From NCBI GenBank assembly GCA_032718865.1, contig JALUTQ010000028.1, positions 496,001-560,000 on the forward strand: a DNA stretch of 64,000 bases, in the 5' to 3' direction. Positions 34,456 through 53,997 of this stretch are shown one piece after another. The position numbers and the translations under genes were made by a program. The stretch comes from Tilletia caries. Lineage: Eukaryota; Basidiomycota; Exobasidiomycetes; Tilletiales; Tilletiaceae. Below the pieces are notes generated by a model. That model worked only from the letters and a program-made list of their open reading frames with translations. It was not told where the DNA came from and did not search any database. The first letter of the stretch is position 1; each line of letters opens with the position of its first letter.

Positions 34456-37400
34456 ATGCACAGTGTCTACCTCAACGCGCTTTGCCAGCATGTTTCCGGC
34501 TTCGGCTTCCTCGAGGGACGCATGTCCGACAGCCGCATTCGTGCCTTTGGCCGCGTCTACCACTTGCACCGCCTCTTCCTCGTCCAGGCAAGCTTCTTCA
34601 ACGGCCTTTTCTGTGCCGGCTTCGCTGAGGGCTTAGACGGCATCGGCAGCCTCAACAAGAATTTCCATGGCCGTGCGGACGATGGGGATGAGGAGGACGA
34701 CGATGGCTCAATCGATTTGCCTTTCGAAGATCCTAACATCACCAGGCCCGCATTCGAATATTGCATTGCGCATCTGTACGGCGCGGCACCCGAGTTGGTG
34801 CTCCCGGAATGGGCCAGCCCACAGCCGACCCAGCCGCTGTCCTCAGCGTTCGTCGTTCCAGCCGTGGTGGGTCCTCCGGGCTCGCTGTCAATGTGTCTTC
34901 CGGGCTCGCAGTCAGCTCCCTCCGTCGCCAATGCAGATGGGTCCTCCTCCTCGGCACACCCCGCAACCCCTCGCTTTCTCCTCTCCCTGCTCGCAACGTC
35001 CATCTATCTCGGCATTCCTAGTGTCACCACGCATGTGATCACCCTGATTCTCTACTCCATCACGCCCTTCACCATAATGCACTACCTCCGCTTCGCGACT
35101 GGCCAGACAATCCTCGGCGCCTCCGAGGCGATGCAGCGCAGCCTCATGCATGAGATTGCGCTCTCAGCTCCCATTGGCTCCGATGACAGCCTGACACATG
35201 CTCGCCCAGACGTTTGGGATTGGGAGCTCGAAGGGCCCGTCAGCGGTCTCGAGCATCTTGGCAAGATACAGCGCAGAGCCGCAAAGCACGCCCAGCCCTC
35301 AGCCTCAGCACAGAATCGAACAAATAGCAAGGCAGCTCGTTCCACTCATACTGCCGATTCAATTTTGCAGCAGACGAAGAATTTGTCCTTAAACGATGAC
35401 GGGACAAGCACGGGTCCCAACTCAGTCGATGGACACCAGACCACCGCTCCAGCATCTCCCCAGCCGCAATTCGCCTCAGGACGTTCGCCGATCAAGCAGG
35501 AGGACCGTTCGGCTCATACGCTGTCTGGTGGATCACCGACCTCGGTTGTATCTGCTCCAGGCTCTGACTCAACTCAGACAGACAAAAAGTCCGATTCGAG
35601 CAAGCATGGTATGGATGGCAAGCGAGCAGGAGACCTCAATGAGGTACCTGTCAGCGAAGGCGGCACCTATCGTGGCGATGCGTCCAAAGTGGAGGGTGCA
35701 TCAGGGGGACGGACCTCGCGGACGTCCAAGTCTTCCGAGGGTTCCACCATCGGAACCGACTATCTCACTGATGAGGCTGAAATGGGTGCACAGGCTCCCT
35801 TCCGGAGCTACCCAGTCCGGCCTCCGCTCATGGGTGAAGCTGGTCCTGAAATGGGCCAGCTCTTCCGCCAGCCATTCCAGCGACAGGCACAGTCCGGAGC
35901 ACATAGCAAGGGAAATGCTCAATCGGCAGGAAAGCCGAACATGTCCCGCACTGGCCACCTGCCAGGGCCACGAGTTGGCACCAACAAGCGGTCGCATTTC
36001 TTCTACGGGGATTGGGGAGAAAAGATGGGCGAAGCATGTGCCTGCTGGCTCATACGTTTTGGTGCGGATATTTTGGAGGAGGAGATTGCTGCTGAAAAGA
36101 ATCGTGCCGTAGAGACTGAGGCATGGATGGTATCACAAGCTCAGACACGCTCGAAGAGGTTCATGCGAACTAATCTCGAAGGGGATGGCGAACTTGCACC
36201 TTGGCAACTTGCCCTCCAGATTCCGAGCGGGGAAGGCTCCAACTCGATCTACGGCAGCGCTGGGTTTCCTGCATCCCCCAGTCCGTTCGGGAAGAAGTCG
36301 GCTCATGCCTACCAGTCGACGCCACGGGGAGCTTCCCGCGCAGAGCATGAATGGCGTACGACAGGAGATGGATACGACAGCGACGAGAATCAAGGTGTGG
36401 AGCAGACGCCTGCGGGACCAGACGCCCACTTCGATGCACCGGATGAAGATCGATTCATTCAAACATATATGCTCCCGTATGGCCAATTGCCGGAAAAGGA
36501 ACAACTCGCTCGTCCACCGCCTTTGCTTGTGTGGAGCTTGGGTCATATGAGCGCAGACTGGGTGCGCGAGATCATTTCGTCGGACAGCTTCTTTGTTTGG
36601 TCGGAATGGGACCGCTTTATCTTCGCTACTCGCGTGGTCGAGCTTCGCCGTCGACAGAAGCTGAGGAGACTGGCCGTCCTCAAGCTTTGCGGCGATGTCG
36701 AGGACGATGGAGACGAGACGGAGAGCACCGACGATGACAGAGATCCCAGGGCAGACAATGCACAACCTTCCGACGCCAGCACCTCTGAGGCGAGTCTAGG
36801 CGAGCAGTGGCGGCGCCTTACGGGCGAGAAGTCTTCTCAGCATGGAGGAGATGGCGATGACGACGGGGATGACGGGGACGACGACGACGATGACGACGAT
36901 ATGTTGCTGTACGGTCAGAGTCACCACGGCAGGTCTGCTCGTCGCTCATCTGGCACTCGCGCGCTTTCGGGCAAAGGCAAATCAGCCCCTCACCGTCGTG
37001 ATCGTTCACCGGCATCCCGGAGAACCTCCTTTGCCTCGAACGCCAACGTTACTGGCGAGTTTCAACGACCTTCCAAAGGCACGCCCGGCACGCCTGGTAG
37101 CAAGCGGTCCAGTGGTCGAGCACTGCCGCACGCCTTTTCTAAGGGCGACAAAAGCCGGGCTTGGTCCCAGCGCAATTCCACTGTTAGCGGACCTGGCTTG
37201 CCTCGTGATGCCGACGAGCATGAGCATGAAGAGCTGTTCAAGAAGGGTGTTTACTACACTCACATGAGCTTTGATGAGCTTAACCGCATTAGCTCCAAGG
37301 TCTCTCCCACGACCGGAACGACGTTTGTTCCTCTCGCGGTGCTCCAGTCGGCACTCTGGGCGGGATCAGAGCTGAAGAACCACATCCTTGCAAGTCGCAC

Positions 37401-39736
37401 GCCCTGGTCCGGGTCGCGCTGGTCCGGGTCAGACCCTCAATCCTCCTCATCGGCGGACCCACCGCCTCAGCTGCCAAACATAAACATGTGGCCCGAAAAT
37501 GGTGATGATGACAATCATGTTGGTGGTCCTGTAGGTGCGGAGCAAGGTCAAGGTCCGAATGGTGGAGGGACGAGCGGGCAAGGCATGAGCAATTCGGCAG
37601 TCCTGCCGCCGGTCAAAGATCTCAACATCTCCAGCACGCTGAGCGAGTTCCGTCTGGCCGCGGACGCGATGCTAAAGGGAAACTCGAGTCTTCATGGTCA
37701 TGGCAACCTGTTCGATCCGAACTTGTCCTACCTGATGGGGGGTCAGGACCAAACCAGGCCACCTATCACGCTGGGCGGTCATATGGCCAGTCCTCTCATG
37801 TTGGGGGCGGCCAGCAAGCCGGGCGCGCTGCTCAGCAAGCGGTATTTCCCAGTTCTCACTGACAGCACAGTCCGCTTGGGAGGAAGCACAACGCCAATCT
37901 TCGGTAGCGGCGGAGCGAGTACGCAGGCTGCGGTGGCCGCGGACAAGTCAGGCGTGCTTGATGGGTCGCAAGCCCCACCTTCTCCTGCCACAACAGCATC
38001 TGGCGCTATGGGCGTTGCCGCCGCCAAAGATCCGCTCGCCTTCACCGTCTCGTCCAGCCTTCATGGTACCACCCAGTCATCCTCTTCTGTCCCGGGAACT
38101 CTCGTTGCTGACGTCGCAGCCACCCTCGAGGGTGGACAGCATTCAAGCACATTCCGCAGCCGAGCAGCCAAGTACTTTGGCATCAGCAACTGCGTGCGCA
38201 CTGGTCGAGAGCTGGCAGCGGACGCCACTGTCCTGGAGGAGGCTCAAGCTCGTGTTGCGAACGAGCTGTCTGAGGAATCTTCGTTCTCCTCAGATTCGGA
38301 AATGGGAGACGTCACGGACGAGAAGGGTCAGGACGGTGATCCGAATGCGCCTGCCAAGAATTCATACCACACCTCGGGCAAATATGTGAAGAGCGAGCTT
38401 ATCCGCAACGAGCTGGAGAATTCGCGCTGGACTGGATATGAGCCCATGCGGATTGGTGCTGAGTTTCATGGTGTCGACACGCTCGCCGACAAGCAGCGGT
38501 TGTATTCGCCAACGTTCTTCTATGCTGGTGAGTGCCTTCCTTGCGACATTGACTAAAAAATCAGTACTCACTCTTTTTTCTTCGTGTGCAGGCTCGCTAT
38601 GGAATCTCTATGTCCAGACAACGAAGAAGTCGAAGGGTCTTCAGCTAGGTGTTTACCTTCACCGGCAAGCTCCGCACGACCCGATCCCGATGGCGACTCT
38701 GCCTCCCAATATCGTTCCACGACTGATCCGTCGCGCCGACGAGATTCCCATCGAGCGGTCTACGACACCAAGACATGCCCCAAGGGACAACGTGCGAGGA
38801 AGTCAGCAGCGTGGCGGCGTTCCCTCTGCTCTTCGACAAAACCAAGGTTCTGGAGGCGGCAACGTTCCCTCCCTCTACCTCAACATTCCCACCACGCCCG
38901 GCTTGCCCAACAACAATGCAACTGCCGGGCCCTCAAATGCTGGTGGCTCGCACCAGAGCTCGATCGTCATCGCCTCTGCTTCAGCGGGAACATCACCGGG
39001 AACGATGTCGTTGCCAGGAGCGAATTCATCGTCGCTCGGGAGCGGACCATCACTGAGCAGCAGTCCCGGACGCAGCATCACCGGTCCTTTCATGAATGGG
39101 ACAGGTAGCTCGATTGTGGCCAATACTCAAGCTCCAATCGGCGGTTCGGCGCTCGGTGCTGGTGGCACAGGAGGCTCGCTGTTCCAGGCTGTCAACGCTC
39201 GCTATCAGGAAGTTGCTGCAGCCGACAATGCAGCGAATACAGGCGATGCCCAGGCGGCACACGGCCACGGAGGAACTGGAGCCGATGCGACTGCTCAAGG
39301 TACCAGCTTTGGGTCCGTCCCGCGGGAGAGCGCGACACAAAACATGATGGCTCCCGCAGCTTCGGGGCCTCCTTCAGCCACGACCTACGCTATGGCGCCT
39401 CTGGTTCCTTACTCCGATCCGCGGCGCGAGTTGCGGGCATGCTTCTCTATACACTGTCCGTCACCGCTGGGCAGCTCTCTCACTCGCTTCAGCTCCGGTC
39501 CGGATCGTTTCGCGTTGACGCAGGTGAGTAAATGCTTCATCTACATTATCATGAGGCTTGAGGGAAAGACTGGAATTTCATGCTGACACATTTTGAATTC
39601 CTTGCTCAAGAGCTGGGGCTGGAAGTCGAGCTCGCTCTTGATGACGATGTACCTCCCCGAGCGAAAATTGACGGAAGCAAAGACGGAGGCTCATCGATCC
39701 TTCCGGTGCGTCTGCACACTCTCGCTCGGGCCATGA
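34456..39736 (+). CDS. large BTB/POZ-domain protein
   Basis: Three exons (34456-38527, 38592-39523, 39611-39736) give about 1709 residues. The N-terminal 240 residues hold a BTB/POZ-like fold (RAFGRVYHLHRLFLVQASFF ... FEDPNITRPAFEYCIAHLYG ... FLLSLLATSIYLGIPSVTTH), split by a Ser/Pro-rich insertion. Long disordered regions follow, including an acidic run at 36850-36900. A conserved C-terminal module begins at FFYAGSLWNLYVQTTKKSK and resumes at ELRACFSIHCPSP ... DRFALTQSWGWKSSSLL. This is the layout of a conserved fungal BTB family, perhaps a cullin-3 adaptor or scaffold. The last exon is uncertain: homologues usually end in a short hydrophobic strand, and an alternative donor at 39705 would change the final residues. 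The gene begins only 261 bp after the 7.8-kb transposon. Confidence 0.8.
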
Positions 39737-40131
39737 TTCTCCTCCAGTCCTCGACACAAAGACCTCGGTCAAAATCATCTTCACCCCGGGGCGCATCCCA
39801 ACTCCCAAATCTCTTCCAACCAGTGTCTTCTACAATTTGGACTTCAACCCATTCCCGTATTTGTACCTTCACATCGTTCAGGCCTCAGGTCCTGTACATA
39901 CAGTACCTCTCACGTTAAAGGCGTCCCTGTATCCCATTCAATTGACGGAAATGATTCTCGCTGTGGCTCCCATTTGGTTCTGTGATCTATGAGGGAGTGT
40001 GAGAGGTGATCTCGTCTGAGCGCTTGAGCACGGCGCTTATCGTGATGCACGACCACCACGATCTTGGCCCGCCCAGAGCTTGGCCCTCTCAGTACCATCT
40101 GCCTGCGTAACGTATCTTGCTCCCCAGTAGT
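39737..40131. other. intergenic 395 bp
   Basis: Contains the 3' flank of the BTB gene and the promoter of the oxidoreductase. One open frame continues from the BTB last exon region to about 39990 and may be an alternative terminal exon. Confidence 0.4.
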
Positions 40132-41784
40132 ATGCCAAGGTACTCTCTCACCGTTTTTGGCGCCACAGGATTCACGGCCAAGCTCTTCAGCGAACTTCTG
40201 GGCGCAGAGCTGGCCAAAGGCGAGGAGGCCTCGACGTACGAGATCGGAAGGGATGCCAACTTCACCTGGGCGCTGGCGGGTCGATCGGCCAAGGCTCTCG
40301 AAGCCGTCGCCGACTCTCTCGATCTGCCGCCAGCCAAGCGGCCTGGGATCATCGTCGCAGACGTGATGGACCAGGACTCGCTGGTTTCGATGTGCAAGCA
40401 GTCTGTGCTCGTGCTTAATTGCGTGGGGCCGTATGCGTTCTTTGGCCATCAGGTCGTTCGAGCCGTGCTGCAGGCGAACGAGGAGATCAAGTTGGCTGAT
40501 CCTGGGGCGACTGGTATCTCCTACCTCGACATCACTGGTGAGTCTCCCCTAATTCGTCACATTCAGCTCAAGTGCTGAGGACTGATTCTTGTTCTTCCTA
40601 TGCAAGGCGAGCCGAATTTCATCGAGAAGAGCTGTCTTGAGAACCACCGCAAGGCTCAAGAGCTTGGCATTACGATCCTGCATTCGGCGGGCTTCGACTC
40701 CGTGCCGGCTGACCTTGGGGTCCTATTCACCAAACAGAAGTTGCTCGAACGCTCGGTGCAGCCTACATCAATCGAGATGTTCTTCCAGCTCAACTCTGGA
40801 AAGCGAGGATTTGGGATGTGAGTCTCTGATGCGATGCGACAAGCGTAGGCAACTCTGTGCTGATCGCCTTGGATCTCTTAAAGTCACTTCGCCACGTATG
40901 CAAGTGCAGTAAACGGCTTCTCGACGCGTCATATCCTTGCGAAGACGCGCAAAGCTCTTGGCTCCCTTCTCCCACGTCCGCCCAAGCCAGCGGCTCTCGC
41001 AGTCGGCCTCTCCGATGGTCTCCCGCGTCGACAGACTCGAGTCCCCGGTGTCCTATATGCGCCAGAGTACCAGGACGCGACCGGCTCAGGCCAGACTCGG
41101 GGCACCTACCTGCTGCCGTTCTTCTTTGCGGACCCCGCAGTCGTGCGGCTCTCGCATGCCTTGGACGTCGACCTCAAGACCAAGGTCCCGCCGATCAAGC
41201 TGGTGGCCTGGATCAACATTCCGAAACTCCGGGCGTTACTTCTGGTCATTACCAGTCTCTCTTTCTTCGGCATCATGGCAGGCTTCAAATGGGGACGGTC
41301 TTCACTCCTGCGTTTCCCAAAGCTGTTCTCCAGCGGCATGGTATCTCACGAGGTACGTCTTCTCGCAGTTGTGTGAATGCATGTTGATGTTGAGGAGACT
41401 GGCTCACAAAACTGTGCCTCCGGATCGGAACAGGGTCCCACACGCCAACAGATTCAGAGCACCTCGTTCTTGACGACGCTCGTCGCCCGCGGTCACAGCT
41501 CCGCTGCCATCGCCAACGCCAGCAATAACAGCGACAGCAAGTCGGCCAGGCGACCCGATCATAAGATCAACGTCCTCGTCTCCGGCCCTGAGCCTGGCTA
41601 TGACGCGACGCCATTGTGTATGCTGGCGTGTGTCGAGGTCATGCTCTCGCCATCTCAACGGGATCTTGTGCGGCGAGGCGTGCTGACACCCAGTGTCGCG
41701 CTCGGCGGTACCCGGATTATCGATGTGCTCCAGTCCCAGCCGGGCGGGGTGCGCTTCAAGGTCGTGGATCCTCCCCAGATTTGA
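40132..41784 (+). CDS. saccharopine dehydrogenase-like oxidoreductase (SCCPDH family)
   Basis: Four exons (40132-40537, 40607-40817, 40884-41352, 41434-41784) give 478 residues. The N-terminus has the Rossmann dinucleotide motif VFGATGFTAKL. It is followed by LAGRS, LNCVGPYAFFG and HSAGFDSVPADLG, all conserved in the saccharopine dehydrogenase-like / trans-acting enoyl reductase family. A hydrophobic segment (LLLVITSLSFFGIMAG) near residue 330 may bind membrane or lipid droplets, as in the human homologue. The C-terminus GGVRFKVVD is also typical. The physiological substrate is unknown for the family. A typical lysine-pathway saccharopine dehydrogenase is excluded by the different fold order. 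Confidence 0.88.
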
Positions 41785-41869
41785 GACCATTCCCCTGAGT
41801 CCGAGCTGTTTGTTTGCTCCATGTCTTGGGAGGAAGTACATATGGGAACAAACATATCTTAAACCCTAG

Positions 41870-42169
41870 CAAAGATCTACGCGTCTCGGCGCGTACCGAT
41901 TGACGATCCGTGCCCCGACGACCGCGTGTTTCACGCGGCTTTTGGATTTTGACTAGAACACTAGAACAGCTTCTATCTGTTTGCGCCGGGTTCGACAGCG
42001 ACGATATCGTGGCAGTTGTGCGATCGTCTCGGATCTGGAGTGCGCGCGTGGTCGGGTTGAGGGCGGTGATGGCGCCGGTGTAGGAGCCGCCGCTGGTCAG
42101 GCTCAGGTGGACGCGCTTGCCGATGAAGGGCGAGGGCGCCGATGCTGTTGTCGACGCTGATGCTGACAT
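41870..42169 (-). pseudogene. LSm-like fragment resembling an Edc3 N-terminus
   Basis: From an ATG at 42169 (minus), PFIGKRVHLSLTSGGSYTGAITALNP resembles the LSm strand pattern of the N-terminal domain of Edc3-type decapping enhancers. After about 60 residues the frame runs into sequence without resemblance and on into the 3' end of the neighbouring oxidoreductase gene. No remaining domains follow. It may be a truncated relic or a very short independent gene. The retrotransposon to its right ends within about 60-130 bp of the start codon. Confidence 0.35.
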
Positions 42170-42229
42170 TGTGTGTGTGTATCTCTCTGTTTGCGTGAGG
42201 TTGATGGTTCGCGTTGAGATTGTGGTGGT

Positions 42230-45200
42230 GAATTGATTGTGGTGGTAGAGGAAGAAGAGGAAACTATACATGTGAAAGGAACTAAATGCGATAGCCAGCG
42301 TGCCAGACTACCACAGAAGGAACGATTCTGCTCGAGTACGAAGAAGAATCACAGAGAGCTCGTCGAGAACATAAGAGAAAGAAGGGACCACCGTACGCCA
42401 AAACTTCAACACATCCTGTGTATCCTGCCCTTCGACCCCGTCAAGCAAGAACACCATGGGCTTGAATGCCGTGGAGGTCTTGCCGAGGTACTTGGCCACC
42501 TTTGCCCGGGCCTGCTCCTCGAGGTATTGCTCCGTGCTCCACGTCGCGCCTGCCTTGTTCCCCTTGCCCCACTCCAAATCTCCCGCTTCCATCACCATCC
42601 ATTCCCGTGCTCGCTTCGTTGCCAATGATGTGAACGTGATGTCAAATTCCACCACTGATCCCGTTGGTGCTCCCGTGCCTGCCACACGCAAGTCCGTTCG
42701 TTCCTGGCCAAAACGCTCTTCCACTCGAGGCTCGACAATGACTTGGGTGTCTTTTGTCTCCCTCAGCACACGCGCAAAGAGGTCTCGGACCTTATTGTGC
42801 CGGCTGGTGTAGTGGTGAACGCGGCTGCGGCAGATGTCGTCGTGGGCGTGCTCGTTCGGGAGGCCGCATGAAGGGCATTTCGGATGAGGATGACGAATGA
42901 GCGTACGCAGGTGCATGCCGACTTGAACGAGACGATCCGAAAGTCTTGTTTTTGTTGTAAAAGGGATCGTTGTCATCCAGCGTCGAGACAGGCGCCACGC
43001 GTTTGCTCGGACCGTCATTGCCTCTTCTCTTGTGAGCCTAGAGAACAGTTTTTCCTCCATCTGGTCGTACATTTGCTTGCAACGGAGACGTTGAGGGAGG
43101 AGGTCACGCTCCTCCGTCGTCGTCCCGTCTTCGTACTCCTCCGTCGTCCACTCCACGTCCTCCTCCATCGCCTCTTCTGCGTCCGACTCGTGATCCTCCC
43201 GTTCCAATTCTCGTGCTGCTGGTTGTACCACGGCTACGCATAGAGAGCTGCGGATGAAGAAATCCGCAGATTGGCGGGCCGCGGCGCGCGCGTGAGGCGC
43301 GAGGTCTTTGAAGCGCGGCACACCGCAGCCGCCGCGAGCTGCAGGAAGAGAAAAGAGAGCCTTGTCGTGTGCGCCGCGTCGGAGAGAGACATCCCGGATG
43401 TCGCGGAGAGCAGAGTGCAGCTTGTGGTCCAGGGGCTGCCACGCGTCACCGATGTCGTCCGTGCGCAAAGTGCGCGTGAGGTGGCGCAAATCGTGTTGGA
43501 CACAGTTGGTGAGGAGGAGGAGAGCGTCCTGTTTCCGGAGGCTGGAGAGCTTGTCGATCTTTTTGGCCTCTCGTTCGATTTCCTCCCGCAAAAACTGTAC
43601 TCGAGCCTCTCTTGAACCAATCACCGAGCCGAGAAGGCTCATTCCCTCGGCCTGAATTTCCTCCCGAGACATCTCCACGCTCTTGGAAGTGTTGAGGTCC
43701 AGGCCACAGTTAGTGCCGTCCGCACTCTGCTGTTGGAAAAATTCCTTGACCCGCTCCAGGGTGCCAGCATCCTTTGAAAAGATGTAGCCGTCGTCCAAAT
43801 AGAAGACCACTATGCATTCCTCACCTAGGAAGGCTTGGAGGCGCGTAACGAGGTTCCTGATAGCGACAGAGAAAAAGAAAGGGCCAAATGGGTCGCCTTG
43901 TTGGACACCTTGCTCTGCGGTGATGACCTCGACGCGGTCTCCGTCCACGACAAACATCGCGCCTTCGTGACCATATCGCCAGGCCGCAAATTTGTAGGCG
44001 TCGCGACAGTGCTGGTGTACGCCGTCGTCAATGGCTTCGCGGAACAGCGCGTTGAAGGCGTCGCGGAGGTCGATGGACGTTATGTGCTTGTAATCCGGAA
44101 GCCGTCCTTCAAGCAGCAGATCTGCGAGGCGAATGACTGGTTCCACGCCGCCAGGAGTGCCGACCCCGAGCTGATTGGGGAGCAGGGCCTCGGAGAGGGG
44201 GAAGACCTTGAGGAGGAGCTTTGCGCAGAGGCGGTAGAGGAGCTCGCCGACCGCGATAGGCCGAATGCCCCCGTCCGGTTTGCTGAGCGGCAAAAGCAAG
44301 GCGGAGGATAGAAGCTTGCGGCCGGGGGCGTCTCCGGAAGCCATCTGACGAGTCAGAGCGATGACGAACTCGCAGAACCGGTCGCCCTTGGTTGCCAGTT
44401 GAAGGAGGGGGACGGTCCATCCGCCGATGCCCCCGCTCGTGTCTTTGCGGAAGGTTCGGGCGCTTTTTCCGGACCATGTCCGCGTCGATGTCTTGAAGGG
44501 AGAGAGGCGCTGCCAATCCCTTTCTCTTGAAGCGCCTGGCCTTTCGGTTCGGGAACTTGGTCTTCAGGGCCGAGACGGTCTCCTCGTTGACTGGAAGAAG
44601 TTTGCTGTCGCGGTCCAGAGCGTGGGCTGCCTGTCGAAGCCGTCCGACTCCGATCTTTCGGTGGACTTCGTCGGCCAGATCGGTTTTTCTGGGCATGCGG
44701 GTTCTTTCTGCGGACAAGGGGGTCGGGACAGGGATGTCCTCAGTGTGCATCCGCTGTACCAGCGTGGGGGCGCCAAGGGAGCGGTCGCGGAGAGGAGAGA
44801 GGACCACTTTTTGGGGTAACGACGATGTCGAGGAGCTCCTTGAGGCCGCCGTTTGTACTGTACAGGAACGCACCAGCCTTTCGGTCCATCATGGCCGTGA
44901 AGTCCCTTGATGCGTAGGATGGGAGCATTCCGGGAGCAGCCGGCAAGCGAGCAACGTCCTTGAGAACGTCCAGTGCTTCATCTTCCGTCAGTGCCGGGCG
45001 ATCGTTCTGGTAGGGGGACTCGGCGAAGGCATCATCAGCGGCTTCTGGAGCGGGCGGAGCGACGGAAGGGGTGCGCTCCACGGCCGAGGTGAAAGAAGCA
45101 ATCGAATCGTTGTCGCTGTTGTCCTCGTCGGCATTGATGCCGATTTCGTCGGGGTTAGGGGGTGCGTCGCGGCTAGCAGCCGCACGCGAAGCTGCTGTGC

Positions 45201-45600
45201 GACCGGCGGATGCGCCAGCTGCACAGACATGTGGCGGGGCTGTTCCGGGCGGCGGCAAGCGGAAGTACTTGCCGCAAGAGGAAGCAGGGCATCGAGTGTA
45301 GCCGCTGGCGCGGAGGGTTGCCTCCGCAATTGCCAGTCTGGCGACATGTTTGCTGTTGAGGTGGCGGCCTAAGTCGGCGAAGAACCTCCTGTTCTGGCAC
45401 GAAGCCCGCCCGGGGCACTGGATGGCCACGGGCCGGGCAAGAGAGGGCTTCTTCTTTCCGGGCAGCTTGCTTGTGTGGCCAAAGGACTTGGACTGGATCT
45501 GTGGGTAAAAGCGGTACAAGGAGCCCTTCTCAGAGAGCTCAGCCCTTTCCGTGGTGGTCACAAGCAATGAAGCGTTGTAAAGAACTAACTACGGAAGTCG
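42230..45600 (-). mobile_element. non-LTR retrotransposon with restriction-like endonuclease
   Basis: A single coding unit, reading leftward, has N-terminal zinc fingers, a reverse transcriptase and a C-terminal PD-(D/E)XK-type endonuclease, the R2/R4/CRE arrangement. No LTRs are seen. The left boundary is somewhere between the stop codon (42308) and the LSm fragment. The right boundary is uncertain (about 45570-45700). I could not identify a poly-A or simple tail. Confidence 0.75.
42308..45567 (-). pseudogene. non-LTR reverse transcriptase/endonuclease, two frame changes
   Basis: Reading leftward from 45567: a C2H2-like finger (CPGRASCQNRRFFADLGRHL) and a second Cys/His cluster, an acidic linker, then SLGAPTLVQRMHTEDIP, and reverse transcriptase motifs PLSKPDGGIRPIAVGELLYR, SIDLRDAFNALF (catalytic Asp), GVQQGDPFGPFFF and FYLDDGYIF (catalytic Asp-Asp). 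A CPSCGLPNEHAHDDIC zinc knuckle with RHNKVRDL follows, then the endonuclease residues RTDLRV and VEFDITF. The frame changes at two A5 runs on the coding strand (44808-44812 and 44464-44468), each equivalent to one extra A. The downstream 678-codon frame from 44344 is intact. The copy is either dead or the two A runs are miscounted in the assembly. Confidence 0.85.
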
Positions 45601-46206
45601 TCCTCCTCATCGCAGGAGATGATCGATGGTCCATGCACACTCCTTACCTCGACCCCCTCAGCATACAGACAACCATGTCCAGAGTCAATTGAAAGAAGTA
45701 TGGCATAGTGGGAGAGATGCGGTAGGGGGAACGAGGCCAGAGGAGCGTGTTGACTGCTGACCCTTCCCTCCTTTCGCTCCAGGTCGATCCCAGACGCATT
45801 CTCGCTCATTCTTTTACCCCTTCTTTGCACATAAACAGCCATCATCGCCGTCGTCCGCACTGAGGCGTAAGGCAGACTCTCCAGTACCAAGGGCAACAAG
45901 GACGGCGTCAATCTCTGAGTACATCAACCTCTGCACTCGCCCTGGACAACCTTTCGAGGATGGGTGGGGCCGAAACAGGATGGAAAAGGAGGGGCGGTCA
46001 ACGCGAGTGAGATGAGATGGACAACGATCGAGATGGGGACCCTTGCAAGCAGACAAGCAGAAGACATCGCTCATTCGCTCATCCTTCCTTCCTTCTCTTT
46101 TCGGTTCACTGCTCACGCTCACTCTTCTTTCCCCCTTCCTTCCCCCCATTTCTGCTGCCTGCCCATCACCTAGCTGCAGCGCTCCACTACCCACAATCAG
46201 CAAAGC
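45601..46206. other. spacer between retrotransposon and mosaic gene
   Basis: C/T-rich stretch, no recognisable gene. It could contain the retrotransposon 5' end and the promoter of whatever transcribes the mosaic that begins at 46207. Confidence 0.4.
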
Positions 46207-47266
46207 ATGGCCTACCCAGTTTCCTCTTCCGCTCTCCCCCCCTTCGAGGCTCCGGTCTCCGCCAAAAAGTCCACAATGCTCGCCCTCACCTGGCAGGGCA
46301 AGAACTCGGTCGTCATGAAGTCCATTCCAGTCCCACACCTCGTCGACCCAACCGACGCCCAACCCAAGAAGCGCAGAGCCGTCGAAGACGACGACAATGA
46401 CGACGAGGAAGAGCTCGACCCCGACGAGGTCGCGTCGCATTGCGGACTTGTCCGACAACGAGGACGAGATCGACGACGAGATCGATGACGAGGACGACGA
46501 CGTTGGCGGACGCCGCAAGAAGCAGAAGCGCGCCCGCAACAAGTACCTCGATATCGAAGCCGAGGTCGACGATTCCGACGAGGCGCAAACGAATCATGGG
46601 ACCGCTTCTTGCCCAAGTTCAAGAAGCGCAACGTGAAATCCAAAAAGCCAGCGGCGAGCGATGGGCCTGCGTCGGGGTCCAATTCGGCGCCCGTTGGCAG
46701 TGGCAGCGGTAGCGGCGGCGGCGGCTATGGAGATGTCGCGAATGGCAACGATGCCTCTGCGGAGGACGGTGGGCAGCTGAAGAAGAAGAAGAAGGTGTAC
46801 ACTCCCTTCCCGCCGGCGCAGATGCCGCGCAAGATTGACTTGCAGATGGAGAGCGGAGGTACGTGTTACTATGCTCGTTCAGGCGATGCCCTATGGTGCA
46901 CATTATGGATACTGATTATGACTTTTGCTACCTACAGAGTACTTCCTCAAGCCGCGTGAGAGACAACAGGCAGAGGATGACCGGAAACGCAAGTCTCAGG
47001 AGGCCAACGCGGTCCGTCGGGAGGAAGAGCGAGCGAAGGCATACATCCCGCCAGAGGAGCCTACCCGGACGGCTCGGACCGACGATGCGGATAACGGAGA
47101 GGAGAAGAAAAAGAAGAAGAAGCGGAAACGGGAGGAGGGGGAGGAGGTAGGAGACACCAGTGGGGTTGAAGTCGAGAAGAAGGAGAAGAAGAAGAAGCAC
47201 AAGGAGAAGGACGGAGAGGAGACGAAGAAGAAGAAGAAGAAGAAGAGACGGGAGAGCAGCGATTAA
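46207..47266 (+). pseudogene. mosaic of dehydrogenase, SPT5 and KRR1 fragments
   Basis: Three host genes are stitched together. 46207-46365 reads MLALTWQGKNSVVMKSIPVPHLVDPTDA, across an apparent start: the N-terminus of a zinc alcohol/formaldehyde dehydrogenase. About 46366-46586 reads PKKRRAVEDDDNDDEE, then in a shifted frame RKKQKRARNKYLDIEAEVDD: the acidic N-terminus of elongation factor SPT5. 46590-46858 and 46938-47266, joined across an intact intron, read NESWDRFLPKFKKR ... [26 protein letters not shown] and a Lys-rich tail: the C-terminus of the small-subunit processome protein KRR1, without its KH domains. Frames differ between pieces, so no single protein results from 46207. Loss of the SPT5 KOW and dehydrogenase catalytic domains makes function unlikely. 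Confidence 0.72.
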
Positions 47267-47585
47267 ATCTCGTTTGGTTCGGAACCTGCAGGCGCTATAA
47301 CATACACCTGTGATACCTTTCTTCTGTCTAGGCTCTTCCACTTGCGACGCGTCACACGGATTGATGTCTAAACACGAGCGAGAAATGGTTTGCGATTGGA
47401 GAGAGGGTGGCGAGAGACAAGATCTCTTCCTAGAGACCAGCTTCAAGCTTCAACAAGCTGCAAGAATTGTCATTGGCCATGCACCAAGTCGGATCGATGT
47501 GGCCGATTTACACAGCTGAGGTAGCGAAATGCAGGTGTCCGGTCAGCATTGGTCATTCACAACAAGAAGAGAGACCAGCTCGAAG
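47267..47585. other. gap between the two mosaics
   Basis: No gene is seen. The two mosaic units converge here, with 3' flanks of both. Confidence 0.4.
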
Positions 47586-49016
47586 GAAAGACTCACCCTC
47601 TGGTGCGTGGGAGACGTAGTCGATTGCCTGCTGAACTGAGGTGATGGCATCTGCCTCCTCATCAGGAATCTCCTGGAGCGCATACAAGGCAGAGTGTGAG
47701 CACAAGCCAGCGCGTGCGCATACATGCAACATGAGAGCAAACGACCCCATGAAATAGGATCCACACACTCACAATGTTGAATTCCTCCTCCTCTGGAGAG
47801 TCGCCGCCCGTGAACCGTGCAGACCGAGGTGTACGATGTCGAGGGCCAAGTTGTCCGAGCCGAGAGAGTTGATCAGGTCCTTGAGCACGACGAGAGACTC
47901 TGTGTCGGCAAGCGCGCCGGCAACAGCCTGGATTTCGTCGCCCTTGGCCCCGGAAGCGGCGAGTCCCGCAGCAACGGTTCCGAGGGCCTCAGGCCATGAT
48001 GCAGGGACGAAGCGGTCACCTTGGCGGATGAGAGGGGTGGTCAGGCGCTGGTACTTGAGGCCGTCGTATGCGAAGCGAGTCTTATCGTTGATCCACTCCT
48101 CGTTGATGTCCTCGTTCAGGCGGGGCAAGATGCGCATAACTTGGACGCCGCGAGAGTCCACACGGATGTTAGACCCAACGGCGTCGAGGACGTCGATGCT
48201 CTGGGTCTTCTTGAGCTCCTCAGGTCGGGCCTGGAACGCGTAGGGCTTGGAGGTGAGTTGACTTCCTTTAATCGAACGCTCCGGAGAGGGAGAGGGAGGG
48301 CTTACCGGAAGTGGCAATGAGCGGTAAATGCGGGTGAGCGAGGGTCGTATTTGTGATGGACTGTGCGCCATCAAGCGTGAACGCAGGCTCGTTCAGCCGC
48401 GGCACCCATACCGGTGCTCCGTTCTTGGAGACGAAATCTGCACGATAGATGGTTCAAATACGTCAGACGCCTTAGTCCCATGTCCAGCAGAATTCAAGAA
48501 AGCTATCGTATGGAATGCTAGAACTCTGACACTTACAAAGTCCGTCAATGGGCCGTTCACCCCGCAAGATGCTCAGTTCCTCCACCGCCTCCCGTCTGGC
48601 CACCAACGACTCCACACTAGGAATGGCCCACCCATACCCGCGGAAATCATCGCTCCCCGTGACGTAGTACAGCCCATCACGCTCGACCTTTGGCAAGGTG
48701 AAAGCTTCTCGCACAGCCGGCCCGCGCTCGTCCCTGGCGTCCTGAACCCGATCCGATGGTGGTTCCTCGGCTTTGGTCAGATCGGTACCGAAGCGGCCGA
48801 AGCTGCCGTGCTTCTGTGTGGTGGGGAAAGAGGCGCGTCAGTCAGTCCAGTCAGACGGTTAGAGCAGCGCAGGCAGCGCGCGCGAGGTACGTACGCATGC
48901 TGGGCAGTGCTAGAATCAGACGTTGGTCAGGACGGAGGATGAGTCCTGCGCTTGTGTCTGGTGCTGCTCAGCCATGGCGGGCGAGGTGGAGGTGGTGGCG
49001 GCGTCGGCGGTCATGT
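47586..49016 (-). pseudogene. mosaic of a WD40 gene and the complex I 75-kDa subunit gene
   Basis: Reading leftward: a short unidentified N-terminal exon from 49016. Exon 48813-48537 with YYVTGSDDFRGYGWAIPSVE and exon 48437-48306 with [17 protein letters not shown] together resemble DCAF-type WD40 repeats. Then 48275-47840 reads [40 protein letters not shown] and [14 protein letters not shown], which is an internal part of the NADH:ubiquinone oxidoreductase 75-kDa subunit (NDUFS1). A different frame follows with [14 protein letters not shown] and, after an intron, IPDEEADAITSVQQAIDYV, plausibly the WD40 protein tail. The complex I piece starts where a WD40 intron would begin. Both genes are incomplete (no FeS domains, few WD repeats). 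Confidence 0.65.
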
Positions 49017-49322
49017 TGTGTGTGTGCTGGGTGGGCGAGGTGATGGGGAGCGTGATTGGATGAATAATGCGATGGACTGGGGCGGCGGGAGAAGAGGTGA
49101 GCGCGGGCGAGTGAGTGAGTGAGAGAGTGAGTGGCTCGTGGCTTTCGGGTTGCTCGAGCTGATCCTCAGCTGGCTTGAGCTCATCCAGCGTCTGAGATCA
49201 CACCATCACCAGAGAGAGGAAAGGGGGGAATGAAACTCGCTTCCACGGGCTTCCATGGTATTCGATGTCTGTGCGTTGGTGACCAGTGTGCATTACGTCA
49301 TGGCTGCCCTTCCCACGCAGCC
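49017..49322. other. intergenic 306 bp
   Basis: GA/GT-rich spacer between the mosaic and the MITE; no feature recognised. Confidence 0.4.
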
Positions 49323-49876
49323 GAGAAATTTCACAGGATGACCCCCATTTTTATCTAAGTTGACAGAATGACCCTCACCTTATCTCGTCACAGGATGACC
49401 CCCTCCCAGAAAGCAGAGGAAAACCTTTCTCTACTGATCCACACCATGACCACAGAACGAGGCGAACACAGCTGACGTTTGGCACAAAGCTTTGCGCGCC
49501 TACAACAAAGCCAACAACGTTGAAGGTATTAAAATCGAATCATCCAAAGATGAGCAGTAGATGCTGAGAGAAGGGTCAATTCCAAGGCAAAATTCTCTCG
49601 GCCGAGAGGCGCTCTTTGTTCGCTTCGTTCTGCCCTTTTTTGCGCGACCATTGCTCGACGGTGCGTCTCTCGAATTGTCAATAAAAAGCGGGAGGAGCTT
49701 CAGCGTGGGTAGCCGCGCTGCCATAGGTAGTTTCGACGTGTTCGAGCCTCTGATCGCCGTGGCGGAGCTTTTTACTGGACATCCGAAAGTGGTGGTTCCA
49801 ATCGGGGGGTCATTCTGTACATGAGGGTCATTCTGTCAACTTAGATAAAAATGGGGGTCATCCTGTGAAATTTCTC
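49323..49876. mobile_element. MITE with perfect 55-bp TIRs (CACAGGATG family)
   Basis: 49323-49377 and 49822-49876 are perfect inverted copies, containing TTTCACAGGATGACCCCC near the end and a second variant unit GACAGAATGACCCTC inside. A third unit (CACAGGATGACCCC at about 49391) follows on the left. The end motif is shared with the 7.8-kb element and its nested MITE (TTATCACAGGATGG). No target duplication could be defined, and there is no coding potential. Confidence 0.8.
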
Positions 49877-50357
49877 CTCTCTTCCCCCCCCCCCCCCTTC
49901 GGCTCTTCGCCCTCTTGTCGACTCATAGTTTGTTTTTGCCGGGTGACTGTCTGTCGAACAAACTCTTCGGCGTTAACATCCGTCCCTCGGTGAAAGTTCA
50001 AGGTGAGTGTTTTTCATGTTTTTCGTTTTTTATTCGTTTTTCGATCTTTTTGTGTATAGCTTTCTGCCGTTTTTCGTTCTGTAGTTTCTGTTCGTTGCCA
50101 TCGTTTTTTTTTTTCATTTCTTTTATCTTTTTGTTTTTTTTTCTTATTATCATTATTAGATTAAGAGACGGACCACGTGACTAGCAGAGTCCAACCACGT
50201 GACCAGCACCGCTCCTTTTTTCATTTTTTTCTTTTTCTTTTTCTTTTCTTTTTTTTTCTTTTTTCATTTTTTTTTTTTTTTTTTTTTTTTGCGTCATCAT
50301 CGTTAGATCAAGAGACTGACCAGCACCGCTCCTATTTTTTCCCTTATCTATTATATA
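49877..50357. other. T-rich, low-complexity spacer
   Basis: Begins with a 14-C run near 49886-49899, then long T and TTTTC tracts (50000-50330). Two CACGTGAC boxes occur near 50174 and 50196. No gene. Confidence 0.6.
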
Positions 50358-50832
50358 CGAGGCCGTTGTCAAAAGTATCCGGACACTAAATTTTTAACCA
50401 TACGTTTACTAAGTAATCGCCTGTTTTGGGCTCTCGATGCAACTCAAAGACATGGATATGGAAGACGCTCAATGACGGGCCATTTGGAAAGCCTCTATAC
50501 TGGAGAACAACTTCTCTCTTTGGAGATTTCCCAGCTCTGACTTGGAAGACAGGTTGCTCTAAGTGGAAAGAGGAAGAAACGATTTCAATTAGTAATTTAC
50601 TAGGTGATTTCAAACTCCTTCACACCCACCTTACTCAACCCAGCTCCTCAATTTTTCTCAATTTTTTGAGTCACATATTCCGATGCTCCTGCGCTCTCGC
50701 TAGAAGGTCAGCTAAGAGGTGTATTTTTACAGATTTTACTGACCAAGTTTTACTTAAGGTGAAATAGAGGCGAACACTTAGTAAACGTATGGTTAAAAAT
50801 TTGGTGTCCGGATACTTTTGACAACGGCCTCG
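50358..50832. mobile_element. mariner-like MITE, 475 bp, TA target duplication
   Basis: Inverted ends of 57 bp with one mismatch (50358-50414 and 50776-50832), starting CGAGGCCGTTGTCAAAAG and carrying a TATCCGGACAC block. Each end is flanked by TA (50356-50357, 50833-50834). This is the structure of non-autonomous Tc1/mariner elements. No transposase. The right TA lies 9 bp before a Kozak-like ATG that may begin the Fanzor gene. Confidence 0.88.
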
Positions 50833-50843
50833 TACAGATCACC

Positions 50844-52265
50844 ATGGCCGACCCTCCGCCTGCGCCCTGGATTGGGTCAGTAGCACCAGAATCGGTGCTG
50901 TGGCCTGGCGTAGAAGGCACATAACAGGCGGCGGAGTGGCATAATGCGCCCATCAATACTTGGTTTCTACCAAAATACGCTCACCTGCCGCATCCGGTCG
51001 TGCCGGATGAAGATATCGGCGGAATGCTCACGGAGCTGAGCGCTACACTTCGGCAGCGCCTCGACGCTGTGCCTCCACCACCGCCGCCTCGTCGGGCCAG
51101 GCCTGGAGAGCGCCAAGACAATTCGCGCTTGAAGACGTATCGCACCCGGCTTCGGCCGAATACACAGCAAAAGGAGGCACTTCGAAAAACGGCTGGAATA
51201 TTCAGGTGGACGTACAACCGGGCGGTGGCGTACCTCAAGGCTCACCCAAACGCTTCTTTAAACGACGTCCGGGAACATTCGGTTACAGAGGATGGCCTTC
51301 CCCTCATGAACCTGTCATGGGTGACTCCGGTGCCATACAGCATCAGGGAGCAGGCGTGCCTTGAGGCCCATACAGCGCTTCAGAATGGCTTGGAGGCCGT
51401 TCGGGACGGCGATATTCCGAACTTCGAGCTGAAGTTCCGGAAAAAGCGGGCGCTCTTCTCCTCCTTCCGAATTCGGAAACGTGACTGGGACGGAGGATGC
51501 CTCAAGATCTCAAATTTTGGTCTGGGTCCAGGTCAGCACCAGACCAGGATTCAGACGGGGATCGACGTTCCATCGCTGGAGCATGATGGGGCATGCATCA
51601 AGCAGGAGAACGGGTCATGGTTCCTGCTTTGGCAGAAGGACATGGGGGAACAGAAGATGCGGGTTCCGGCAGCACGTGGCCCAGAAATGTGCGCCATTGA
51701 CCCCGGCGTTCGGACATTTGCCACGCTTTACGACCCTTTGCGGGGAATGACGGCAAAATTTGGCGATGGAGACCACAAGCGTCTTTTCCGCCTCGGTACG
51801 CACTTGGATCAGTTGATCTCGCGATCAACCCAAGCTTCAGCAAAAAAGCGTTACCGTATGCGCCGCGCCGCAAATCGACTGCGTGCAAGAATCCGGCATC
51901 TGGTCGACGAGCTTCATTGGAAGCTGCGTGGCTACCTCAAGCAAAATTTCGACACTGTGCTGCTGCCAACATTCAACGCGCACCAGATGTCTCGGCGAGG
52001 TCAAAGGCGGATCGGGCGAAAGACAGTCAGAGCCATGATGTCGTGGGCGCACTGTCGCTTCAGAAGCCGATTAAATGAAGCTATGGAGGTCGTCGAGGTG
52101 GTGGAGGAATGGACATCCAAGGTCTGCTCAACGTGCGGCACGGTCAACCACAGACTTGGAGGCAGCGAAATCCACCGCTGCCCCGGATGTCTCACAGTCT
52201 CGGATCGAGACGTCAATGGCGCGAAAAACATTTTCCTCCACTGGAAATATGATTTTCTCAACTAG
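50844..52265 (+). CDS. Fanzor: eukaryotic TnpB-like RNA-guided RuvC endonuclease
   Basis: The main exon is open from 50925 to 52265; its first ATG is at 51024 (413 residues). A better start may be the ATG at 50844 in an ACCATGG context: exon 50844-50879, a 48-nt GT-AG intron, then 50928-52265, giving 457 residues. Family signs: N-terminal TnpB fold (KTYRTRLRPNTQQKEALRKT ... FRWTYNRAVAYL); RuvC-I AIDPGVRTF (Asp codon 51699-51701); zinc ribbon with Cys codons at 52125, 52134, 52179 and 52188 (CSTCG ... CPGC); RuvC-III DRDVNGAKN (Asp codon 52209-52211). At the usual RuvC-II glutamate position the sequence reads LLPTF (Pro codon 51966-51968). An alternative glutamate (codon 52107-52109, EEWTSKVCSTCG) lies 47 residues later, as in Fanzor clades with a relocated catalytic glutamate. 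The frame is intact, so the nuclease may be active. No transposase accompanies it. Confidence 0.92.
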
Positions 52266-52560
52266 TGACAGCGACATATTCATCGCGGATTTGGGCACCT
52301 CTCGCACAGCCTGTGCGAGGCTTGGTGCGAGCAAAGATCGCGCAGACCTCGCGCCTAGACCCCTGTGCAATATGGCTCGCACAGACCCTCGCGCAGACTT
52401 CCCTGTGCGAGCCAGCATCGCACCCTCGCTCGCGCCCCTCGCTCAGCGCGATCTTTTCTCGCACTGGAGTTCTTTGTCAGATCGCACTGACCTGTGCGAG
52501 CTCCTACGCCAGTCACCGAAGCGGCCGGCGACAAAACACCGAAGGCAGACTGTGACTTCT
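52262..52560 (+). ncRNA. candidate Fanzor guide-scaffold RNA region
   Basis: Directly after the stop codon a GC-rich stretch holds strong short hairpins, for example CTCGCACAG followed at once by CTGTGCGAG (about 52302-52320), and repeated TGTGCGAG/CTCGCAC motifs in both orientations up to about 52500. Guide RNAs of TnpB and Fanzor normally overlap the 3' end of the gene and the adjoining element end, so this is the expected place. The boundary with the guide segment cannot be set. Similar motifs recur at 52890-52960 and 53420-53460, so this could instead be an unrelated repeat. Confidence 0.3.
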
Positions 52561-53997
52561 AGTTTCTCCAATTGATGTGACTTTGTTTGTTGGTCTCAGA
52601 GTTTCATGTTTATCCGGTCCGCACTTAAAAAATTCACAACTTTTTTCTGGCTCGATTGACCAGCCTGTCTGAACACACCAAACCTCGTTTTTACCTATTG
52701 CTACACGTATGTAAGGGCGACAGTGAAGATGTGTGCGATCCAACGCGAGTGTGCACTGCATGCGGATGGTGATGGTGAGGAAGGTGATAGGGTGAGCAGA
52801 CTGAGTGTCGGAGGACGCGAGGTGCGTGCGGCGTTGGTTGTTGGAGGTCAGTGCTACAGTCACGTGATCTCCGGACTGGGTCTGGGTTTGGCCTCGCGCA
52901 GGTCGATGCGAGGTTTGCGCTACTCTCTATCGCACAGGGTAAGTGCGAGGTTTGCGCGACACTGGCTGACTTCAAATATAGCACAACAGATGTAGGCTCG
53001 TTGCGATGTGCGATATGTTTATGTGGACATGGCTTCAAATATAGGACAGATATGAGTGAGCAAAGCATCAGCCTCTGAAATACCTTTTGCTAAATCCGCC
53101 ACTCGTTTTCTCTGAAGTGAAGTTCCCCATTTTCCTCTCCCCCCCCTTGTCCAGTGAGTGACCAGTCAGTCTACCCTTCCCACTGCCCACATCAGGGGCT
53201 CAACTACCTGCGCAGATTTCTCATTTAATTTTGGCAATTTTTTAAACCTTTTGAAAATCACTTTCGTCGAATCCACTCTTTGTGTTGTGCGCGCGGACAC
53301 AAGATACACGGGGGGTCGGGGGGCCCGTATATCGCTCCATACAGAACACAAAATACTTGTGTGAGACCTGGGGTTGTGTTGTGTTATGTGCAGCGATGTG
53401 CTATATTTGAAGTCAGCCACTATGTCGCACAACGATCGCACAGGGTCGCGCGAGGATATAGGGTGTCCGCGATGATTCTCTTTTTCTTTTTCCTTTTCCT
53501 CTACATTTTCTTTTCTCTTTCTTTTTCTTGCGCTCTTTTTCTTGCGCTCTTCTCGCTTTCTTTTTCCCTTTTTGCCTTTTCTTTCCGGAAAAATGCCGCC
53601 GATCACACGTGATCGGCGTTTGGGAGCTGCACCCCTTTGGCTTCGGCCATTGCACTAGTCTGTATATAGTACAGGCTTGAAATGCAGCGACATCGTGCCA
53701 CTTTTCCTAGCATTCCATCGTCTGACATTTCTACCGCAAGCTAGAGGCGTGAGGCGTGAGGATTCTGCAGGTCTGCGGCGGATCAGCGCGAACTGGGCAG
53801 GGTTGGGATTGGGAAGCCGCTGCGCGCCTGCGCAGGATTGTATATAATGAGACGGCGCTGACATCCCGCCCCCCTCCCTCACACACATCTGTCTTCCCTG
53901 TCTCTCCATCCTTCCGACTCACAGAACAGCGAACACGCTGCGAGCTTCCCATTTTCCACAGAAGTACTGATTATCAACACGAGCTTTCACCTCCACG
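52561..53997. other. intergenic with repeats, no gene
   Basis: Contains TGCGAG-rich blocks, the inverted repeat described separately, a C/T-rich tract (53470-53585) and the promoter of the peroxiredoxin-like gene. No protein-coding frame is recognised. Confidence 0.5.
52963..53419. repeat. MITE-like inverted repeat pair
   Basis: The 22-mer beginning TGGCTGACTTCAAATATAGC is at 52963-52984 and, reversed, at 53398-53419, with looser matches outside (TGYGCGACA and CGCACAGGGT blocks on both sides). Spacing and symmetry suggest a short non-autonomous transposon of about 500-600 bp whose exact ends I cannot fix. Confidence 0.45.

What the first reader, a model, noticed from the sequence alone, without database searches (positions are those of the whole stretch)
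50844..52265. Intact Fanzor nuclease with relocated catalytic glutamate
Seen: continuous frame with RuvC-I Asp, zinc ribbon with four Cys and RuvC-III Asp. The canonical RuvC-II glutamate position is Pro (51966-51968), with a glutamate (52107-52109) 47 residues downstream. Known: Fanzor proteins are eukaryotic relatives of TnpB and act as RNA-guided DNA endonucleases; some clades compensate for a lost RuvC-II Glu with one about 45 residues further on. Inference: this fungal copy is a compact, probably active member. Nothing in its frame is broken while neighbouring elements are decayed, which suggests recent arrival or selection.
Basis: partly seen in the sequence, partly recalled or inferred. 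Interest (0 to 1): 0.9.

Follow-up and report, generated by a model that had tools for sequence, protein, structure and literature searches.

The report
Decayed Fanzor in gene-capturing element
The gene is a real relative of RNA-guided DNA-cutting enzymes, but this copy carries an early stop and several insertions; more unusual is that its mobile element has one fixed end and a string of copied host-gene pieces at the other.

Summary
The window comes from a Tilletia-like smut fungus. The Fanzor call is right: DPG RuvC-I motif, Pro at the old RuvC-II position, relocated Glu six residues before the zinc ribbon, best fold match mimivirus Fanzor2. Two details are wrong. The frame is not continuous: codon 27 (50922-50924) is a stop. 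The conserved Glu is 52104-52106, not its neighbour 52107-52109. This copy also carries nested insertions around the frame and lacks the TATA-like stretch of most sisters; it is one of 14 of 19 family copies stopped early, while four are open. So "nothing broken, recent arrival" fails for this copy, although the family was under purifying selection. The relocated Glu is published Fanzor biology. Less ordinary is the element. Its right end is fixed: a nearly invariant ~100-nt folded block ending where unique flank begins, probably the omega-RNA scaffold. Its left end varies and is a chain of host fragments. In all three copies whose left edge could be placed, 5-8 bp target duplications flank chain plus Fanzor. 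I read this as serial one-ended transposition with host-DNA capture, like the Chlamydomonas CRe elements of 2013 but more extensive.

The parts
42006..42011 (.). left copy of the target duplication (ATCGTG; the last TG also fits the captured source)
   Evidence: matches 53692-53697 at the independently placed left edge of the mosaic
42010..49310 (.). left part of the element: chain of fragments that match different places of the genome; for 37200-42009 no other match was reported
42010..42208 (.). captured fragment, 99% to C5:1247867-1248065 (continues at 45593)
42221..45522 (-). nested 3.3 kb repeat inside the captured C5 fragment, 99-100% to C23:404852-408130; frame 42311-44563 has a reverse transcriptase domain, so LINE-like
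   Evidence: PF00078 1.5e-17
45593..46102 (.). captured fragment, 92% to C5:1248066-1248554
46103..46583 (.). fragments like C32:915230 (90%) and C30:867193 (91%), abutting; the same stretch also lies 2-7 kb upstream of three other Fanzor copies, in the other orientation
46584..47790. captured fragment, 95-96% to C32:971256-972452
47791..48258 (-). captured fragments of a complex I NDUFS1/NuoG-like gene (C5:1242183 100%, C5:1240977-1241405 98%), antisense to the Fanzor
   Evidence: PF22151 7.1e-32 and PF00384 1.7e-15 on ORF 47772-48392
48258..48908 (.). captured fragments, 98% to C33:460551-461107 and to C32:437275-437369
48918..49310 (.). inner chain shared with many family copies (like C22:536162, C5:906931, C4:2171293), promoter-like
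49323..49876 (.). nested insertion A (554 bp, inverted ends), also in copy L036; the TATA-like stretch that follows in most sister copies is missing here
50003..50837 (+). candidate leader intron (GTGAGT ... CAG), interrupted by insertion B
   Evidence: inferred, no transcript data
50358..50832 (.). nested insertion B: MITE with about 72-nt inverted repeats and TA duplication, absent at this place in the 14 other copies that have the leader
50844..52265 (+). Fanzor coding frame (474 codons with the stop), interrupted at codon 27
50922..50924 (+). in-frame stop TAA
51699..51701 (+). RuvC-I Asp of DPG
51966..51968 (+). Pro at the canonical RuvC-II Glu position
52104..52106 (+). relocated RuvC-II Glu (invariant in 119 aligned sequences)
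52125..52211 (+). zinc ribbon (four Cys) and RuvC-III Asp (52209-52211)
52281..53474 (.). nested insertion C (1.2 kb, CATCGCGGA inverted ends, ATT duplication) between the frame and the 3' block
53586..53688 (+). 3'-terminal block, candidate omega-RNA scaffold; GCAGC at 53684-53688 is the fixed right end of the element
53692..53697 (.). right copy of the target duplication (ATCGTG); the flank beyond had no other match

Best explanation
The window holds a decayed copy of a Fanzor-carrying transposable element. The protein family is an RNA-guided RuvC nuclease of the Fanzor2/TnpB-like kind (shown by homology and fold; cutting inferred). Its omega-RNA is probably the conserved ~100-nt 3' block, whose last stem closes exactly at the element's right end, so that the guide would be read from the flank (inferred from conservation, folding and precedent). 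The element moves as a unit with one fixed end: the right end is the same, while the left end varies and takes host DNA from the left with it, so successive jumps build a chain of host-gene fragments. Chain plus Fanzor is flanked by short target duplications (shown in three of three copies where the left edge could be placed). No DNA transposase was recognised between the duplications in the 23 of 44 frames of 110 codons or more that were scanned; the one mobility enzyme found is the reverse transcriptase of a nested LINE-like repeat. The mobilising enzyme is probably supplied in trans by a rolling-circle system (Helitron Rep matches in the genome; inferred). This copy cannot make the full-length protein from its first ATG.
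For: Protein. Stop and interrupted copies. Family under selection: pooled pN/pS 0.43 over 15 copies, dN/dS 0.30-0.50 in six pairs of open copies. 3' block: 0.5% mean pairwise difference over 14 copies against pooled pS 6.1% in the frame; fold z -2.56, 3 of 200 shuffles as stable. Fixed right end: 14 of 16 aligned copies end at TTGAAATGCAGC (one lacks a T), the two others break off inside the block. Variable left end. Chain of abutting host fragments at 87-100%. A proteasome gene at C32 matches a 1.2 kb piece carried by L033 and L035. Target duplications: 6, 6 and 8 exact bases; in 3000 trials random left edges reach 6 in 1.5% and 8 in 0.07%; source junctions read. No IS607 recombinase. 60 Helitron Rep-N matches, some of them pieces of one gene. 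Frames between the duplications.
Against: Only three left edges were placed, two of them by 6-bp matches; in L040 and the window the match overlaps the edge by 4 and 2 bases. In the window three bases lie between the right end and the duplication, one in L044. My first guess for the L044 duplication, made before the search (edge at 1901), was wrong; the edge fell at 2193, where another 8-mer of the right flank ends. The stretch 46103-46583 lies in the opposite orientation near three other copies, so not every piece need have come by the same route. No transcript supports the omega-RNA, and there is too little variation for covariation. The 21 frames not scanned could hide a transposase. The mobilising enzyme is a guess.
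Confidence: 0.7

Rival explanations
1. An intact, active Fanzor copy kept by selection or recently arrived.
For: Catalytic residues and zinc ribbon are all kept; the frame downstream of the stop is 446 codons long, so an internal start could still give most of the domains; dN/dS against sisters is 0.19-0.57.
Against: In-frame stop at codon 27; insertions in leader, candidate intron and 3' region, and a missing TATA-like stretch. Low dN/dS is shared family history, as the interrupted copies show it too.
Confidence: 0.08
2. The Fanzor core was simply inserted, by an unknown transposase, into pre-existing mosaics of gene fragments made by ordinary Helitrons.
For: The genome has 60 Helitron Rep-N matches. 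Parts of the chain recur elsewhere in other orientation. Four copies of another subgroup share at most about 22 nt upstream of the start codon with the rest.
Against: Duplications bracket chain plus Fanzor in three of three tested copies; the inner chain is colinear across many copies and the copy-specific pieces lie outside it.
Confidence: 0.15
3. The element moves through RNA (LINE machinery in trans) with template switching: fixed 3' end, variable 5' end, target duplications.
For: Same end pattern and short variable duplications. LINE-like reverse transcriptase exists in this genome: one lies in the window's own chain.
Against: The captured proteasome gene keeps its exon spacing (1.2 kb colinear with C32), host genes lie antisense to the element, the candidate leader intron is present in the 14 other leader-bearing copies, and no A-run follows the right end.
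Confidence: 0.12

Closest known systems
Acanthamoeba polyphaga mimivirus Fanzor2 (TnpB-like L79, PDB 9b0l)
   Different: 17-19% identity; viral and, as recalled, in an IS607-type element, whereas this genome gave no IS607-type recombinase match.
CRe-1, 2, 3 elements of Chlamydomonas reinhardtii (Bao and Jurka 2013, PMC3627910; passages, section 8)
   Same: Fanzor-carrying, 3' end constant, 5' end variable, 'one-ended transposition', target duplications of variable length, some extra sequence at the 5' end.
   Different: Those carry Fanzor1 with a defined Helitron2 5' end and frequent 5' truncation; here no constant left end was found and long chains of host-gene fragments are present.
Fanzor2* (Fanzor2 in non-IS607 eukaryotic transposons; Yoon et al. 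2023, PMC10711439; passages, section 24)
   Same: DPG plus alternative Glu, Fanzor2-like protein outside IS607.
   Different: Their examples are cut-and-paste elements of alga and molluscs with terminal inverted repeats; none was seen at the element ends here.
Helitron gene capture in plants and IS91/ISCR one-ended transposition (recalled, except IS91 as cited in PMC3627910)
   Same: Rolling-circle-like capture of host fragments from one side.
   Different: Canonical Helitron right end (CTRR) and lack of target duplication are not met.

Membership tests
Fanzor | RuvC-I DPG motif | tested here: met
   51699-51707; P and G invariant, D 90% or more in 119 aligned sequences
Fanzor | alternative RuvC-II Glu six residues before the zinc ribbon | tested here: met
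   52104-52106; invariant in 119 aligned sequences; definition from PMC10711439
Fanzor | zinc ribbon and RuvC-III Asp, TnpB fold | tested here: met
   PF07282 2e-12; model pLDDT 90.2, top match 9b0l
Fanzor | eukaryotic, inside a transposable element | tested here: met
   51 matches, fragments included, in the own genome; the seven best homologues are named Tilletia
Fanzor | omega-RNA at the element end and RNA-guided cleavage | not testable with these tools
   conserved folded 3' block is suggestive only; no Rfam match
IS607-type Fanzor2 element | IS607 serine recombinase (PF00239) | tested here: not met
   0 matches in the whole genome; the control rings in 10 of 14 genomes
canonical Helitron | 3' end CTRR and no target duplication | tested here: not met
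   right end is TGCAGC; duplications in three of three placed copies
Helitron2 | hairpins at both ends, asymmetric terminal inverted repeats | tested here: inconclusive
   a right-end hairpin is predicted; no constant left end to compare
one-ended (CRe-like) Fanzor element | constant 3' end, variable 5' end, variable target duplications | tested here: met
   (three copies for the duplications)

The most novel reading that the evidence does not exclude
A fungal Fanzor element that has a single fixed end, the end that carries its guide-RNA scaffold, and spreads by one-ended insertion, collecting host-gene fragments, often with promoter and first exons, in a growing chain. The RNA-guided nuclease system would be coupled to a gene-shuffling mobile element, with the omega-RNA end serving as the only cis signal for transposition.
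Probability: 0.3. Interest if true: 0.75.

Novelty: new variant of a known kind. Interest (0 to 1): 0.5.

Why it matters
The relocated Glu by itself is known. What would matter is the element: Fanzors have been found in many transposon types without a clear role in mobility. A family whose only constant end is the omega-RNA-like block, with target duplications and a readable record of successive host-DNA captures, lets one order jumps in time and ask which machinery defines that end. It may also be a source of gene-fragment duplication in smut genomes.

Full report
Origin. The window lies in a 38.1 Mb genome of 40 contigs. The seven best homologues of the protein are named Tilletia (T. laevis 90% over 87% of the query, T. 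caries 94% over 58%, T. indica 66%), so this is a Tilletia-like smut; the species is not settled.

Observation. The stated frame 50844-52265 translates with a stop at codon 27, 50922-50924. Downstream of it 446 codons are open. Of 19 family copies whose start could be placed (20 stretches fetched, L050 left out as its match starts later), 18 start with ATG. Four run open to the usual end (stop at codon 474 or 475), one (L037) runs past it, and 14, the window included, stop earlier. The window copy also has a 554-bp insertion at 49323-49876, shared with copy L036, followed by loss of the TATA-like stretch seen in most sisters (L033 lacks it too). A MITE with TA duplication lies at 50358-50832 in the candidate leader intron, and a 1.2-kb insertion with ATT duplication at 52281-53474 parts the frame from the 3' block. 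The statement that nothing is broken is therefore wrong.

Family history. Comparison of 15 copies gives pooled pN 0.027 and pS 0.061, ratio 0.43; six pairs of open copies give dN/dS 0.30-0.50. This is purifying selection in the family's past, with moderately recent spread. More distant Fanzor lineages (35-55% in the matched stretches) sit on C34, C28, C4 and C7.

Right end and candidate omega-RNA. Sixteen copies were aligned at the 3' end. Fourteen share a block that ends in GCAGC, after which each has its own flank, except that L046 and L050 share theirs; two (L038, L041) break off inside the block. In 14 copies the block differs by 0.5% on average, about eleven-fold less than pooled pS. It folds into one hairpin plus a three-way junction closed by GCUGCA/UGCAGC at the very end (-38.3 kcal/mol, z -2.56). 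This fits an omega-RNA scaffold with the guide read from the flank; expression is not shown.

Left end. Upstream similarity between copies stops at different distances, and four copies of another subgroup share at most about 22 nt upstream of the ATG with the rest. Beyond the shared part lie fragments of host genes antisense to the Fanzor, often 5' parts as read by eye. Of ten such frames given to Pfam, five matched: an NDUFS1-like gene in the window (7.1e-32), a proteasome gene in L033 (one frame above, one just below the cut-off), a proteasome gene in L041 and a methyltransferase in L036; five had no match. Against the whole genome the window's left part decomposes into fragments that mostly abut to the base and match different places at 89-100%, back to 42010; for 37200-42009 no other match was reported. 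L033 and L035 carry 1.2 kb of a proteasome gene whose other copy sits at C32, with the same exon spacing, so introns appear to be kept.

What else is in the unit. Between the duplications lie 44 frames of 110 codons or more. Of these 23 were scanned with Pfam: the Fanzor, the NDUFS1-like piece and one reverse transcriptase (PF00078, 1.5e-17, 42311-44563 on the minus strand) matched. The last belongs to a 3.3-kb repeat that interrupts a captured fragment, so it is a later, LINE-like passenger. No DNA transposase was seen.

Target duplications. Left edges could be placed in three copies: window 42010, L040 about 2435 and L044 2193. At each, bases next to the edge recur just after the right end: ATCGTG, (C)GCATG and CTGCGCAG. 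Random edges reach 6 bases in 1.5% and 8 in 0.07% of 3000 trials. A different duplication that I had predicted for L044 was wrong.

Mechanism. The last insertion moved chain plus Fanzor as one unit. The simplest reading is a copy process that starts at the fixed right end, reads leftwards past the element into host DNA and ends at a variable place; repeated, this builds the chain. Bao and Jurka described such one-ended behaviour for Fanzor1 elements of Chlamydomonas, with duplications of about 7-19 bp (PMC3627910, section 8). Helitron Rep domains abound elsewhere (60 matches, some pieces of one gene), and IS607 recombinase gave no match. The mobiliser remains inferred.

Verdict. The finding is a real but decayed Fanzor with a known active-site rearrangement. 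The surrounding element is a new variant of a known kind and the more interesting result.

Noticed in passing
genome G000, e.g. C5:2136047-2136583, C32:516254-516928: 60 matches to the Helitron Rep N-terminal domain (some pieces of one gene), several in open frames over 1000 codons: a Helitron-rich smut genome.
   Followed up: no
C5:897796-897979 and C5:906931-907667: Right end and left chain of the same family about 9 kb apart without any listed match to the Fanzor frame: perhaps a derivative that lost the gene or carries something else.
   Followed up: no
L042:1-2640: A multi-copy element (four further copies at 98-99%, one of them split) abuts the Fanzor chain; one frame looks like a tyrosine recombinase by eye.
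   Followed up: no
42221-45522: 3.3 kb stretch 99-100% identical to C23:404852-408130 on the same contig, inside a captured fragment; its 751-codon minus-strand frame has a reverse transcriptase domain.
   Followed up: partly
C34:1247553-1248871 and C34:1270672-1271990; C28:824366-840586: Further Fanzor lineages at 35-55% identity in the matched stretches; the two C34 places have near-identical match patterns.
   Followed up: partly
L046 and L050 (C5:1945500-1960500): Two Fanzor copies with the same right flank in opposite orientation about 5 kb apart: an inverted duplication.
   Followed up: no
L051 (C4:2171280-2171640): Promoter and first-exon-like stretch related at 72-89% to the Fanzor leader and diverging just after the presumed splice donor: possible host source or old relic.
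   Followed up: partly
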